Of a DNA stretch of 64,000 nt, positions 2,389 to 6,816 are shown in pieces. The notes under the pieces are model-generated. The model saw only the letters and a list, made by a program, of their open reading frames with translations, was not told the origin of the DNA and made no database searches. The DNA is from Gammaproteobacteria bacterium (GTDB lineage Bacteria; Pseudomonadota; Gammaproteobacteria; HK1). The DNA is taken from NCBI GenBank assembly GCA_021773795.1, contig JAJFJT010000022.1, forward strand, positions 1 through 64,000, in the 5' to 3' direction. The stretch's first letter is position 1, and each line of letters begins with the position of its first letter. The position numbers and the translations under genes were made by a program.

Positions 2389-3573
2389 GTGAAAAATTTC
2401 GATGTCATTATTCTCGGTGGCGGTGCCGCCGGACTCATGTGTGCAATAGCCGCCGGGCAGCGTGGCCGGCGCGTGCTCGTGCTCGAAGGTTCCAACAAGG
2501 TCGGCAAGAAGATACTCATGTCCGGTGGCGGGCGCTGTAACTTCACCAACTTATATTGCGAGCCTTCCAATTTTATTTCCGCCAATCCACATTTTTGCAT
2601 CTCTGCCCTGAGCCGCTATAGCCCGTGGGACTTCATTGCGCTGGTGGAAAAACATGGCATCGCCTATCACGAGAAAACCCTCGGCCAACTGTTTTGCGAT
2701 CACTCGTCAAAAGACATCCTCGCCGCACTGACGACTGAATGTGAGCAGGCAAATGTCCACATACTGACGGACAGTGAAATTAGCTCGGTGGTACATCAGC
2801 AGCGCTATATCGTGAGCTGCCGTCATGATGACTTTTCCGGCGAATCACTGGTGCTTGCCACTGGCGGACTGTCCATTCCGAAAATGGGGGCCACTGATTT
2901 CGGTTACCGTCTGGCGAGGCAATTCGGGCTGAAGGTACGCACTACCCGCGCCGGCCTGGTGCCATTTACATTTTCCGGCGCCATGGGCGCTGTCATGGCA
3001 CGGCTATCCGGTGTCAGCTTGCACGCCACCCTTGAGGCCGGTGATGTGGCATTCACCGAGGGCATCCTGTTTACCCATCGCGGCCTCAGCGGCCCTGCCG
3101 CGCTGCAGCTGTCCAGTTACTGGAAACCGGGGAAGGATATTCGCCTCAACCTGTTACCCGGGCACGATGCAACAACACTGCTGTTGAAAGCCAAGGCGAC
3201 ACAGCCCAGAGCGCTCTTGCGAACGGTGTTGTCAGAGCTTCTGCCACGGGCTTTGGTGCTGGAACTGGAGCCGCTTTTCTGGCCCGCATCCGCACAAGTA
3301 CCACTGGCTGAAATTTCCGACGATGTGTTAAAGCAGGTGGCGAAACAGCTAAATGCCTGGATATTAAGGCCCGCCGGCACCGAGGGTTACCGCACGGCGG
3401 AGGTCACTCTAGGCGGCATCGACACCGACGAATTGTCATCCAAGACCATGGAATTCAAACGCCAGCCCGGCCTTTACTGCATCGGTGAAGTCGTCGATGT
3501 CACCGGCCATCTGGGTGGTTTCAATTTCCAGTGGGCCTGGGCCTCCGCACAGGCCGCAGGCCAGGTTGCATGA
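2389..3573 (+). CDS. BaiN/HI0933-family flavoprotein (NAD(P)/FAD-dependent oxidoreductase), 394 aa
   Basis: The N-terminus has a Rossmann FAD-binding loop GGGAAGL (residues 10-16) followed by the family signature GKKILMSGGGRCNFTN (about 39-54). The C-terminal end GGFNFQWAWASAQAAG matches the second FAD contact of the HI0933/YhiN/BaiN family. The 394-aa length is normal for that family. Members are soluble flavoproteins; some act in bile-acid or aminoacetone oxidation, but most have no established substrate, so I assign no reaction. The start is a GTG at 2389, right at the beginning of homology to the FAD fold. It is a single-gene unit; the next 400 bases hold no convincing gene. Confidence 0.88.
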   Translation: MKNFDVIILGGGAAGLMCAIAAGQRGRRVLVLEGSNKVGKKILMSGGGRCNFTNLYCEPSNFISANPHFCISALSRYSPWDFIALVEKHGIAYHEKTLGQLFCDHSSKDILAALTTECEQANVHILTDSEISSVVHQQRYIVSCRHDDFSGESLVLATGGLSIPKMGATDFGYRLARQFGLKVRTTRAGLVPFTFSGAMGAVMARLSGVSLHATLEAGDVAFTEGILFTHRGLSGPAALQLSSYWKPGKDIRLNLLPGHDATTLLLKAKATQPRALLRTVLSELLPRALVLELEPLFWPASAQVPLAEISDDVLKQVAKQLNAWILRPAGTEGYRTAEVTLGGIDTDELSSKTMEFKRQPGLYCIGEVVDVTGHLGGFNFQWAWASAQAAGQVA

Positions 3574-3975
3574 AGCCAATCTGGAAAGACAAGGCAAAGG
3601 ATCTGCGCTAGGCTGTCTATTATCTGGTCAAGGGTCTCACGGAATGAACCGCTCATGACATCTGCCCGACACCATTTCATCTTGGCCCTATCCCGCGGCG
3701 TGGAGCCCTACCCGGCTCACCAAATACTGCACGCGAATGACCCTCGCGAGGTTTCGCTACTTCAATCCGATTATATGGAAAGATGGCGACATAATACGGG
3801 AGAGACAAAAAGTCCGATTATCAAAAAGAACGTCGGAGTGGTTTTTAACATATTGATAAATAGAGGATATTTATGTTTTGGAGAGAAGCATGGACACATT
3901 GAGCGTATGTGCCAATCCGTTTATTGCCGAATCGGCATTAATCATTAAACGAGCCAACTGTCCACATAAATCCTG
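3574..3975. other. 400-bp stretch without a convincing gene
   Basis: Base composition shifts from GC-rich to AT-rich around 3780. An open frame at 3655-3948 has no recognisable domain or good start signal. There is no inverted-repeat end, tRNA or attC here. The stretch ends in the TCCTG just before the cassette boundary at 3975/3976, so it is probably the flank into which the cassette inserted. Confidence 0.5.
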
Positions 3976-4716
3976 TTAGCTGTAGGAAAGAAAATGGATT
4001 CTTCTGAACAAATACTAAAAAGGGCAGGAATTGCACTATTAATTGTTGGCATTATCGACATTGGTGTAATGATTTACTGCATTACTAATAAAATTAGTTA
4101 CTCTTCTAGTTTCAATATATTTGCTGTTATTGCTGGCATATTTCTTATGAGAGGCAGTATACGCACAGCTAGAATAGTTACTTTCTTTAGCGCTTTCATG
4201 CTTGCTGGTTTTCTCGGTCTTGTAGTAATTTTTCCATTTATGGAGCCATTTGAATTAAAAGCTATCACTTTTAAATTAAATCCTATTTCCACAGTTCTTT
4301 CTTATGTTTTTATGTTCGTGGCTATAGGCTTCGTTTATTGGGTATATAAAAACCTTGCAAGTGAGCCTGTGATGACCGCAAGAAAAGAAGCAGGCCTCAG
4401 TTACGGAGTTCCAAAACTAGCATTTGGGTTCGGCGGAGCATTAGTAATTGGTCTATCCATAGCAATGTATTCCTTAAACAACGGTTCAAATGCAGAAATT
4501 GCCAAAGCAAAAGCTCTAGAGCAACTTGGAGATTCGTACAAATATCATGTTACAGCCATGAATTTTTCCGGCAATTATGCAAGCGCTCGTCTCACTGCTT
4601 ACCGTGAGGGTGAAATCAAGGAGCTTAGTGTTGAGTGGAATGAATAAAACAGCTAACAAGGCGCTCGTTCGGACGCAAACTACGCTGCGCTTCGTTTGCG
4701 CCGCACAGCTAGGTCG
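3976..4716 (+). mobile_element. integron-type gene cassette (single, no integrase seen)
   Basis: The left boundary is GTTAGCT at 3975-3981. The right end is an attC hairpin at 4651-4722 whose left core is AGCTAAC (4651-4657), the exact reverse complement of the left boundary. That is what an excised circular cassette closed between G3975 and T3976 would show: its attC would have fully complementary outer cores. One gene (3994-4647) starts 18 bases inside the boundary and stops just before the attC, the standard cassette layout. The cassette is 741 bp and visibly more AT-rich than the core genes. No intI, attI or second attC is visible, so this is either a stray cassette inserted at a secondary site (TCCTG|TTATGTT) or the remnant of an array. 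Confidence 0.72.
3994..4647 (+). CDS. cassette-encoded hypothetical membrane protein, 217 aa
   Basis: I do not recognise a family. Five hydrophobic segments are visible (about residues 10-30, 40-55, 60-82, 98-118 and 138-160), followed by a soluble tail (about 165-217) that reads like a small alpha/beta domain. It begins MDSSEQ and starts 18 bases after the cassette boundary, with GGAAAG upstream as a plausible ribosome site. Codon use is AT-rich (many AAA, ATT and TTA codons), unlike the housekeeping genes in the window, which fits acquisition with the cassette. It likely sits in the inner membrane. Nothing in the sequence tells its function. Confidence 0.75.
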   Translation: MDSSEQILKRAGIALLIVGIIDIGVMIYCITNKISYSSSFNIFAVIAGIFLMRGSIRTARIVTFFSAFMLAGFLGLVVIFPFMEPFELKAITFKLNPISTVLSYVFMFVAIGFVYWVYKNLASEPVMTARKEAGLSYGVPKLAFGFGGALVIGLSIAMYSLNNGSNAEIAKAKALEQLGDSYKYHVTAMNFSGNYASARLTAYREGEIKELSVEWNE

Positions 4717-4722
4717 TTATGT
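4651..4722 (+). other. attC recombination site
   Basis: The site has the parts of an integron attC. The outer core is AGCTAAC (4651-4657). An inner arm, GGCGCTCGTTCGGACG, is followed by a strong central stem, CGCAAAC (4674-4680) pairing with GTTTGCG (4694-4700). CCGCACAGCTAGGTC then precedes the right core GTTATGT (4716-4722). The right core differs from the left core's complement, as expected when the right half belongs to the next DNA after strand exchange. Confidence 0.78.
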
Positions 4723-4759
4723 TCTAAAGCGCTGAACGGAACCTATTTTCAAGCAAGAC

Positions 4760-5296
4760 ATGAGCTACAAAATTCTCGATAAAAACAACAAAGAAGAGGT
4801 GGCGGGCCTTTTCAAATCCGTCTTTTCTTCATCCGAGGGAGAAAAAGAAGGCGAGCTGATTGGTAACCTTGCATCGCAACTGTCTTCAAGAACTGATGAT
4901 CAGGAAATAATTTGTATTGGCGCTTATGAAGACGAATCAATTGTCGGGGCGATTTTTTTAACTCATCTTGGATTTAATGAGCCCGTCACTGTTTACATGC
5001 TTGCTCCTGTAGCAGTTAGCACAAAGCATCAGGGGAAAGGCATCGGGCAGGCGCTAATCAGGCATGGATTGAATGAGTTGAAAAATCGATCTATCGCTGT
5101 AGTCGTCACATATGGTGACCCCTCTTTTTACTCCAGGGTAGGATTTCAAGCCCTATCAGAAGATGTTATCCAGGCGCCGCTGAAACTTTCAATGCCGGAA
5201 GGCTGGCTGGGCCAGTCCTTAACGGGTGAGCCAATTCCAACCATCAATGGGCGTCCCGAATGCGTAAAGGCATTCAACGATCCTGTTTATTGGTAA
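4760..5296 (+). CDS. GNAT-family N-acetyltransferase (YhbS-like), 178 aa
   Basis: The protein carries the GNAT acetyl-CoA motif QGKGIGQALI (about residues 91-100) after the beta strand VYMLAPVAVS, then the FYSRVGF segment typical of YhbS-type members. Length is normal for a single GNAT domain. It would transfer an acetyl group from acetyl-CoA to a small molecule or protein; the acceptor cannot be read from sequence. It starts 44 bases after the attC, and its base composition is lower in GC than the core genes, so it could be a second cassette that lost its own attC. I see no attC between its stop and the nitrilase start. It may be co-transcribed with the nitrilase 25 bases downstream. Confidence 0.85.
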   Translation: MSYKILDKNNKEEVAGLFKSVFSSSEGEKEGELIGNLASQLSSRTDDQEIICIGAYEDESIVGAIFLTHLGFNEPVTVYMLAPVAVSTKHQGKGIGQALIRHGLNELKNRSIAVVVTYGDPSFYSRVGFQALSEDVIQAPLKLSMPEGWLGQSLTGEPIPTINGRPECVKAFNDPVYW

Positions 5297-5321
5297 TGAC
5301 AGAAACACAAGAGGAATCGTC

Positions 5322-6257
5322 GTGGAAACAATTGCAGTAGTACAGGAATCTCCGGCTTTCCTTGATCGTGAGAAAACGATTGCGCTGGCCATTGAATTGG
5401 TCGAAAAAGCCGTTAAGGGTGGCGCCAGGCTGATTGTGTTCCCGGAGGCTTTTATCTCGGGATATCCCGCATGGATATGGCGACTGCGACCGGGAGGTGA
5501 CTGGTCACTTAATGAAGAGTTGCATGCACGCCTGCTGGACAGCTCGGTCAACATCAGCGCCGGCGACCTGGATCCTTTATGTATGGCCGCGAAGGCACAT
5601 AACGTCACAATAATCTGTGGCTTGAACGAAAGAGACGGTGATCTCAGCCAGGCTACCGTCTACAACACGGCAGTTGTTATAGGCAATGATGGCACCATTT
5701 TGAATCGGCATCGGAAGCTGATGCCCACAAACCCGGAACGAATGGTTTGGGGCTTCGGTGATGGAACCGGCCTGAATGTCATCGACACGCCGGTCGGCAA
5801 GGTCGGGACATTACTGTGCTGGGAAAACTACATGCCCCTGGCGCGATATGCACTCTACGGGCAGGGCATACAACTCTATGTAGCGCCAACCTACGACTGT
5901 GGTGATGACTGGATCGGCACCATGCAGCACATTGCCAGGGAGGGGTGCTGCTGGGTTATCTCCTGCGGCGTTGCGCTGACGCGAAGCGATATTCCGTCCG
6001 ATTTCCCCGAGAAGAGCACAATCTACCCGGACTCCGAAGACTGGATAAACGCTGGCGATTCCGCTGTCATTGCACCCGGCGGGAAAATTGTGGCTGGCCC
6101 GATGAGAGAGGCAAAAGGGATTCTGTTTGCCGAGGTGGATCCGAATAGTACGGTCAGTGCCAAACGCGCTCTCGATGTGGCAGGGCATTACTCACGGCCT
6201 GACATTTTTAGCTTGAGCGTCAACAGACAGGCCCAGAAGCCCGTGGTATTCAGGTAG
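5322..6257 (+). CDS. nitrilase / carbon-nitrogen hydrolase, 311 aa
   Basis: All three catalytic residues of the nitrilase superfamily are present: Glu42 in FPEAF, Lys132 in HRKLMPT and Cys166 in LLCWENYMPL. CWEN after the catalytic cysteine, together with the HRKLMPTNPER segment, matches the true nitrilase branch (nitrile to carboxylate plus ammonia) better than the amidase branches. It is expected to be a soluble, spiral-forming enzyme. The start is a GTG at 5322, with GAGGAA at a good distance and MxxIAVVQ at the expected fold start. It follows the GNAT gene by 25 bases. The substrate is unknown. Confidence 0.9.
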   Translation: METIAVVQESPAFLDREKTIALAIELVEKAVKGGARLIVFPEAFISGYPAWIWRLRPGGDWSLNEELHARLLDSSVNISAGDLDPLCMAAKAHNVTIICGLNERDGDLSQATVYNTAVVIGNDGTILNRHRKLMPTNPERMVWGFGDGTGLNVIDTPVGKVGTLLCWENYMPLARYALYGQGIQLYVAPTYDCGDDWIGTMQHIAREGCCWVISCGVALTRSDIPSDFPEKSTIYPDSEDWINAGDSAVIAPGGKIVAGPMREAKGILFAEVDPNSTVSAKRALDVAGHYSRPDIFSLSVNRQAQKPVVFR

Positions 6258-6265
6258 TTGAGGAT

Positions 6266-6390
6266 ACTGCTGACCCGGAATGACGGGAGCCTTTTTTGAT
6301 TTTCTTGTTTCCCACGCTTCTATGCTTCGTTCTGCCCTTTATCAATAGGGCTGCTAACCGAATTTTCCGAAAGTTAACGAGACAACAGTG
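6266..6390. repeat. decayed inverted-repeat element related to family A
   Basis: The right end (6373-6390) reads in reverse as CACTGTTGTCTCGTTAAC, matching the family A terminus at 1687 at most positions. The left end ACTGCTGACCCGGAATGACGGG repeats words seen inside the first element. The pairing between its own ends is poor, so it looks like an old copy or a solo end. No gene lies inside. Confidence 0.4.
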
Positions 6391-6461
6391 AGTTTAGGAA
6401 TAAATATAGCTTGGACGTTACAGAAACCTCCGGACATATTCAGTGACAAACAAGAAGCCTC

Positions 6462-6785
6462 TCAACTTTCAGATCTGGCGTCTCTGATTTCGTCGTCCAG
6501 CGTCCTTATCTGGTTGATGATAAGGAGCAGTTTCCGACCATTTTGGGTCAGGGAATATTCTGTTCTGGGTGGAACTTCCGCATATATCTGCTTGGATAAC
6601 AAACCATAGCCAGTCAGTTTGCGTAGTCGCTCCGAGAGCACCTTGGTGGAAATTCCCTGGATGTGCCGTTCCAAAGCACCCGGACGCGCAATGCCAGCAG
6701 CAACGGCCTGCAGAACCGATACCGACCACTTGCATCCCACTACGTCTTCGAGCTGCCGGTAAACAGGCTTTGTCGATGAGGCCAT
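6462..6785 (-). CDS. HxlR-family winged-helix transcriptional regulator, 107 aa
   Basis: The sequence fits the HxlR DNA-binding domain: QLEDVVGCKWSVSVLQA, then the recognition segment GISTKVLSERLRKL and the wing YSLTQNGRKL. A cysteine (in VGCKW) sits where redox- or quinone-sensing members such as YodB and QorR keep theirs, so sensing thiol stress is plausible but not shown. I place the start at the ATG at 6785 (MASSTKP); another ATG at 6812 would add nine residues. It is divergent from a CxxC thioredoxin-like gene at 6931, and a tandem repeat lies between them, so it probably controls both. Confidence 0.85.
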   Translation of the reverse strand: MASSTKPVYRQLEDVVGCKWSVSVLQAVAAGIARPGALERHIQGISTKVLSERLRKLTGYGLLSKQIYAEVPPRTEYSLTQNGRKLLLIINQIRTLDDEIRDARSES

Positions 6786-6816
6786 TTTTTTATTTTCCTT
6801 AGTTTCCGGCAAGTTA

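What the first reader, a model, noticed from the sequence alone, without database searches (positions are those of the whole stretch)
3976..4716. Single integron-type cassette with perfectly matched outer cores and no integrase
The DNA between GTTAGCT (3975-3981) and the attC hairpin (4651-4722) has the exact form of a gene cassette: the attC left core AGCTAAC is the reverse complement of the left boundary, and one gene fills the space. It lies alone, with no intI, attI or second attC in view. If the sequence TCCTG|TTATGTT was the empty site, then an integrase put the cassette at a secondary (non-attI) site. The cassette protein is an unknown five-helix membrane protein.
Basis: partly seen in the sequence, partly recalled or inferred. 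Interest (0 to 1): 0.65.

Follow-up and report, generated by a model that had tools for sequence, protein, structure and literature searches.

The report
Integron with many scattered attI sites
The lone gene cassette is real, but it sits behind a copy of the genome's own integron insertion site (attI); this gammaproteobacterium has seven such sites scattered over its genome and only one intact integrase gene, so one enzyme probably loads genes at many places.

Summary
In detail: window 3976-4716 is a gene cassette with matched outer cores and an attC (4651-4722). Two parts of the interpretation fail. (1) The genome does have an integron integrase: an intact intI with a LexA-like operator on another contig (C33). 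(2) The left boundary is not a secondary site. Window 3756-3975 is a copy of the ~225-bp attI that lies beside that intI. The genome carries seven full copies of this module; homology among copies stops at CCTG|TT, where a different gene follows each time. Only one copy has an intact intI beside it; attC candidates, some weak, follow all seven. Two sister species show the same design. Three attI positions are shared between species with different sequence behind them; the window's locus and two others are empty in a relative. Four copies, the window's included, share an intI-less left flank yet carry different cassettes, so loading probably happened in trans. One cassette occurs at two loci, with homology starting exactly at the cassette boundary. 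Best reading: a distributed integron, one SOS-regulated integrase serving many attI stations. Trans activity is inferred, not shown. How the modules spread is unknown. Integrons, CALINs and attG sites are known; I found no description of dispersed intI-less attI modules.

The parts
3598..3755 (.). Left extension of the module: intI-less flank shared with the copies on C17, C20 and G001:C4; on the - strand it reads as an ORF start (MSGSFRET...)
   Evidence: blastn matches of 73%, 73% and 66% reaching query 1399/1409; alignment
3756..3975 (+). attI module copy; recombination point after G3975 (CCTG|TT at 3972-3977)
   Evidence: nhmmer with the 13-copy profile 208.9 bits (the window is one of the 13); blastn 78% to the attI beside intI on C33; homology among copies stops at CCTG|TT
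3764..3782 (.). Left inverted repeat of the attI module (ATCCGATTATATGGAAAG), inverted relative of the core region at 3960-3975; role unknown
   Evidence: Conserved in the alignment of copies; weak reverse-strand self hits in several copies
3976..4716 (+). Gene cassette 1
   Evidence: Boundaries GTTAGCT (3975-3981) and AGCTAAC...G|TTATGT (4651-4722)
3994..4647 (+). Cassette gene: 217-aa predicted membrane protein of unknown function
   Evidence: No Pfam family over its cut-off and no NCBIfam match; no homologue in 369 genomes of the class or 72,556 plasmids; low-confidence model
4651..4722 (+). attC site (R'' 4651-4657, R' 4716-4722; the last six bases belong to the following DNA)
4717..6423 (+). 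Possible second, decayed cassette: GNAT acetyltransferase (4760-5296) and nitrilase-family hydrolase (5322-6257), ending in a weak attC-like stretch (6380-6423)
   Evidence: Part of the stretch absent from the G001 locus; begins GTTATGT like other cassettes; attC-like end only 8.2 bits, E 0.78 in 4 kb, so unproven
2389..3573 (+). Left flanking chromosomal gene (HI0933-like flavoprotein), conserved in both sister species
6462..6812 (-). Right flanking chromosomal gene (HxlR-type regulator), conserved in both sister species and next to the HI0933-like gene in G001

Best explanation
The window holds one station of a distributed integron. A ~225-bp attI module exists in seven full copies across this 2.56-Mb genome. 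Only one copy, on contig C33, lies beside an intact intI. That intI has a LexA-like operator, so it is probably induced by DNA damage. The integrase made there is proposed to act in trans: it recombines folded attC sites of cassette circles with the CCTG|TT core of any attI copy, so cassettes enter the genome at many places. The window's station carries one clear cassette, perhaps followed by a decayed one. Shown: the attI copies, their precise junctions, the different cassettes behind them, the intact integrase, empty loci in relatives and attI positions shared between species. Inferred: that loading happened, and may still happen, in trans, and that the modules are kept by selection. Unknown: how the modules themselves spread.
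For: Intact intI: TIGR02249 455 bits against a cut-off of 265, tyrosine-recombinase motifs visible, CTGTTTATATATACAG upstream. attI identity: the module lies between intI and the first cassette in all three genomes of the genus. Thirteen full copies in three genomes (7, 3, 3), with homology ending at CCTG|TT and unrelated sequence after it. attC candidates follow all seven G000 copies, though those on C14, C20, C30 and C3 (far side of the C19 locus, assigned by synteny) score only 26-34 bits; C17 has at least four. Trans loading: C15, C17, C20 and G001:C4 share an intI-less left flank but have different genes right after attI. C20 and G001:C4, C19 and G002:C11, C24 and G001:C28 are orthologous loci with attI sequence in both species (partial on C24) and different sequence behind it. 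One cassette (153 aa, 88% protein identity) is first at C20 and internal at C17; homology starts at GTTATGTGCAATAAGG although one copy follows attI and the other an attC. Empty loci: C15 in G001; C17 and C30 in G001 and G002. In G001 the intI lacks its C-terminal end with the catalytic tyrosine, and two of its three attI copies are the most divergent.
Against: No recombination was observed. The shared cassette differs at about 22% of bases between its two loci, so that move is old; no identical recent copies were found. C30 keeps an intI fragment and C14 a decayed LexA box, so at least those two look like decayed complete integrons. No clearly empty, intact attI copy was found in the genome. 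Orthologous attI copies are not more alike than paralogous ones and the attI tree is mostly unresolved. No promoter above chance was found in the module. The genomes are draft assemblies and arrays at contig ends are incomplete.
Confidence: 0.75

Rival explanations
1. Graveyard of complete integrons: the whole intI-attI platform was duplicated or acquired several times, cassettes were loaded in cis, and intI then decayed at all but one place. The orphan attI copies are relics with no present function.
For: C30 retains an intI fragment (residues 163-234); C14 retains the intI upstream region with a decayed LexA box; a further intI-like fragment of another lineage lies on C20 (57% identity); the intI platform sits at different places in G000 and in G001/G002.
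Against: C15, C17, C20 and G001:C4 share an intI-less flank with no intI trace but different cassettes, so at least those loadings came after intI was gone. Blocks of the module stay near-invariant over 13 copies that are only 62-90% identical overall, which suggests constraint.
Confidence: 0.2
2. Secondary-site insertion: IntI put a lone cassette into a non-attI genomic site (an attG-type event).
For: A single attC without a neighbouring integrase is the form such events would take; attG insertion is described in the literature (Loot et al. 2024, cited in PMC12444791). G002 has an attC candidate but no detectable attI in the same intergenic gap (L050:4750-4860), and a cassette cluster at C11:355-364 kb without detectable attI.
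Against: The 220 bp left of the window's cassette are a copy of the attI that lies beside intI.
Confidence: 0.03
3. The ~225-bp module is a miniature transposon (MITE-like) with terminal inverted repeats that happens to contain a cassette insertion site and also landed beside intI.
For: Inverted repeats near both ends (GGATTATGTGGAAA / TTTCCACATAAATCC); dispersed copies; lineage-specific presence at several loci.
Against: Left ends vary (intI-side spacer, shared 150-bp extension, truncations), no target duplication could be defined and no transposase partner was identified. The module lies in the same place beside intI in all three species.
Confidence: 0.1

Closest known systems
Sedentary chromosomal integron (intI + attI + attC cassette array)
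   Same: intI of the TIGR02249 family, divergent from the array; LexA-like operator; attI between intI and the first cassette; attC-bearing cassettes, mostly of unknown function
   Different: Seven full attI copies over the genome instead of one; only one beside an intact intI
CALIN (cluster of attC sites lacking integrase) and single-attC equivalents
   Same: Cassettes with attC away from any intI; said to be mobilisable in trans by a functional IntI (PMC12444791)
   Different: Here the arrays examined in G000 start at a recognisable attI copy. IntegronFinder 2.0 states that attI sites outside class 1 are poorly described and not detected (PMC9024848), so such arrays would be filed as CALIN
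Xanthomonas CALINs at conserved loci (PMC12444791)
   Same: Several chromosomal cassette loci away from intI, at positions shared between species
   Different: No attI copies are reported at those loci in the passages read; whether they exist there was not tested
attG insertion (cassettes in non-classical genomic sites)
   Same: Single cassette outside a complete integron
   Different: The window's cassette lies at an attI copy, not at an unrelated genomic sequence
Delta-attI-type cassettes of class 1 and 2 integrons (PMC12901181)
   Same: attI sequence found away from its place beside intI
   Different: There attI fragments replace the attC downstream of a gene inside an array; here full modules lie upstream of cassettes at separate loci

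Membership tests
Integron gene cassette | attC with R''/R' cores and a hairpin-forming bottom strand | tested here: met
Integron gene cassette | Cassette start complementary to R'' and a gene filling the space up to attC | tested here: met
   GTTAGCT / AGCTAAC, ORF 3994-4647
Integron attI site (window 3756-3975) | Homologous to the sequence between intI and the first cassette, ending at the recombination point | tested here: met
Integron attI site (window 3756-3975) | Recombined by the cognate IntI | not testable with these tools
   Needs a recombination assay
Complete integron at this locus | intI adjacent to attI | tested here: not met
   The only intact intI is on C33; no intI match in the window
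CALIN | At least two attC sites without a neighbouring intI | tested here: not met
   One clear attC in the window; C17 and C30 of the same genome would qualify
attG (secondary site) insertion | Left flank is neither attI nor attC sequence | tested here: not met
   Left flank is an attI copy
MITE | Fixed ends with target-site duplication | tested here: inconclusive
   Inverted repeats present, but left ends vary and flanks are too diverged to define a duplication

The most novel reading that the evidence does not exclude
A distributed integron: attI modules behave as satellite capture stations that spread through the genome, exist without their own integrase, are kept by selection and are loaded in trans by one SOS-induced IntI. 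Some cassette arrays now filed as CALIN in other bacteria could be attI stations of this kind.
Probability: 0.45. Interest if true: 0.8.

Novelty: new variant of a known kind. Interest (0 to 1): 0.6.

Why it matters
Integrons are understood as one attI next to one intI, with cassettes elsewhere explained by intI loss or by attG insertion. A genus with three to seven full attI copies per genome and one integrase makes two questions testable: where integrase-less cassette arrays come from, and whether an integrase serves distant attI sites. It also means that one inducible enzyme could feed several loci, each perhaps with its own expression context. Standard annotation does not look for attI outside class 1 integrons, so such systems may be overlooked.

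Tried and rejected
Rfam scan: nothing at the locus. DNA folding energy as evidence for attC: too weak alone. attC DNA against the own genome: only itself. Exact 19-base attI core in public genomes: 18 stretches, of which 6 lie in the two sister MAGs OFTM67 and OFTM98; the rest are scattered unrelated taxa, taken as chance; one viral contig hit was not pursued. attI in other genera: none in 369 genomes of the class outside this genus and none at two intI loci of other genera in the family. Target duplications at C17 and C30: flanks too diverged. Promoter in the module: not above chance. Cassette protein: no homologue in plasmids or in 369 genomes; structure model too poor for a fold search. attI tree: mostly unresolved. 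Second attC model R2 found no consensus pairs, so it tests sequence only. Literature searches for multiple or additional attI sites returned nothing on point, but the library lacks most subscription papers.

Full report
Observation. GTTAGCT lies at 3975-3981, AGCTAAC at 4651-4657 and GTTATGT at 4716-4722, and one 217-aa ORF (3994-4647) fills the space. The attC has independent support. A Thiolapillus brandeum plasmid with a series of attC-like sites matches it at 92% over 77 nt. A sequence-only model made from 19 other attC sites, without this one, puts it first in the 64-kb window (E 0.003, next 3.3). In a 12-site alignment four of nine arm pairs show compensatory changes. Folding energy alone is not convincing (z -1.1).

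The integrase exists. The genome (2.56 Mb, 36 contigs) has an intI on C33 that scores 455 bits against a cut-off of 265. Its sequence shows tyrosine-recombinase motifs, including HTLRHS and QIYTHV. A LexA-like operator, CTGTTTATATATACAG, lies upstream. A cassette array with at least two detectable attC sites runs from it to the contig end.

The left flank is attI. The 220 bp left of the window's cassette match the stretch between that intI and its first cassette (78%, E 2e-45) and several more places in the genome. A dedicated search finds seven full copies in the own genome (C14, C15, C17, C19, C20, C30, C33) plus partial ones (C24, C11), three full copies in G002 and three in G001. In the alignment of 13 full copies homology stops at CCTG|TT, and a different sequence follows each time. 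In all three genomes one copy is the sequence between intI and its array, so it is attI by position. Among 369 genomes of the class sampled, the module was found only in this genus. The two sister genomes carry public names, Gammaproteobacteria MAGs OFTM67 and OFTM98.

What the copies carry. attC candidates follow all seven full copies in the own genome: one in the window, at least four on C17, two on C30, at least two on C33, one each on C20 and C14, and one on C3. C3 is by synteny with G002 the far side of the C19 locus. The C14, C20, C30 and C3 candidates are weak with the model (26-34 bits). Cassette proteins are mostly unknown. One first cassette in G002 encodes a Shedu-type SduA (573 bits) and one cassette on C33 an nSTAND-type NTPase.

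Why trans loading is likely. First, the copies on C15, C17, C20 and G001:C4 share about 150 bp of left flank with no trace of intI, yet each has a different gene right after attI. The intI-less state is thus older than the present cassettes there. Second, three loci are orthologous between species, with attI sequence in both and different sequence after it: C20/G001:C4, C19/G002:C11 and C24/G001:C28. Third, one cassette is first at C20 and internal at C17; homology begins exactly at GTTATGTGCAATAAGG although attI precedes one copy and an attC the other. The two copies differ at about 22% of bases, so this exchange is old. Fourth, the C-terminal end of G001 IntI, with the catalytic tyrosine, is missing, and two of its three attI copies are the most divergent. 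This fits relaxed selection, but it is a single case and could be an assembly fault.

History of the loci. The window's locus is empty in G001, with the HI0933-like and HxlR-type genes about 80 bp apart. In G002 the same gap holds other genes with an attC candidate in the opposite orientation and no detectable attI. The C17 and C30 loci are empty in both relatives. The intI platform sits between different genes in G000 than in G001 and G002. So attI modules and cassettes have come and gone at several places. How the modules spread is not known. They have inverted repeats near their ends, but left ends vary and no target duplication could be defined. C14 and C30 show signs of derivation from complete platforms that lost intI.

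Downstream of the clear cassette. DNA from about 3590 to about 6480 is absent from G001, including the GNAT and nitrilase genes. These could be a second cassette whose attC has decayed; a weak attC-like end lies at 6380-6423 (8.2 bits, E 0.78). This is unproven.

Comparison with what is known. CALINs, trans mobilisation of CALINs and attG insertion are described. Delta-attI cassettes place attI fragments inside arrays. I found no report of dispersed full attI modules served by one integrase, but only open-licence papers were searchable. IntegronFinder 2.0 does not detect attI outside class 1. I therefore rate this a new variant of a known kind.

Weak points. No recombination was observed, the genomes are drafts, several attC calls are weak, and the relic hypothesis remains possible for some copies. 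Orthologous attI copies are not closer to each other than to paralogues, and the attI tree is mostly unresolved.

Noticed in passing
L045:5506-5675 (G000:C17) and dozens of places in all three genomes: A ~165-bp dispersed repeat with dozens of copies, mostly 80-94% identical, in the genus genomes; nature unknown, possibly a miniature mobile element.
   Followed up: no
window 6270-6396: A stretch that recurs at several places in the sister genomes, near the right end of the inserted segment.
   Followed up: partly
L050:3432-5323 (G002:C42): The orthologous gap in G002 holds three other genes with an attC candidate (4750-4860) in the opposite orientation and no detectable attI: the same intergenic site seems to have been filled independently.
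   Followed up: partly
L104:5986-6027 (G002:C11) and L107:5315-5393 (G001:C4): Two shortened attI copies, one with only the last ~42 bp and one with a large internal deletion, both still ending in CCTGTTAG followed by an ORF; they may mark the minimal attI.
   Followed up: partly
L056:6096-7253 (G002:C29): A Shedu-type SduA defence gene is the first cassette behind an intI-less attI, with a weak attC at its end.
   Followed up: partly
L008 (Thiolapillus brandeum plasmid pTBH13): A 13-kb plasmid carrying a run of about nine attC-like sites with toxin-antitoxin, TIR-domain and caspase-family genes and no annotated integrase.
   Followed up: no
L011:9043-9279 (G000:C20:26043-26264): A fragment of a second, different integron integrase (57% identity to the C33 IntI, C-terminal part only).
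   Followed up: no
L045:9200-9420 (G000:C17): The right end of the C17 array seems to carry a decayed partial duplicate of the 3' end of the flanking cca-like gene, perhaps a trace of how the segment was inserted.
   Followed up: partly
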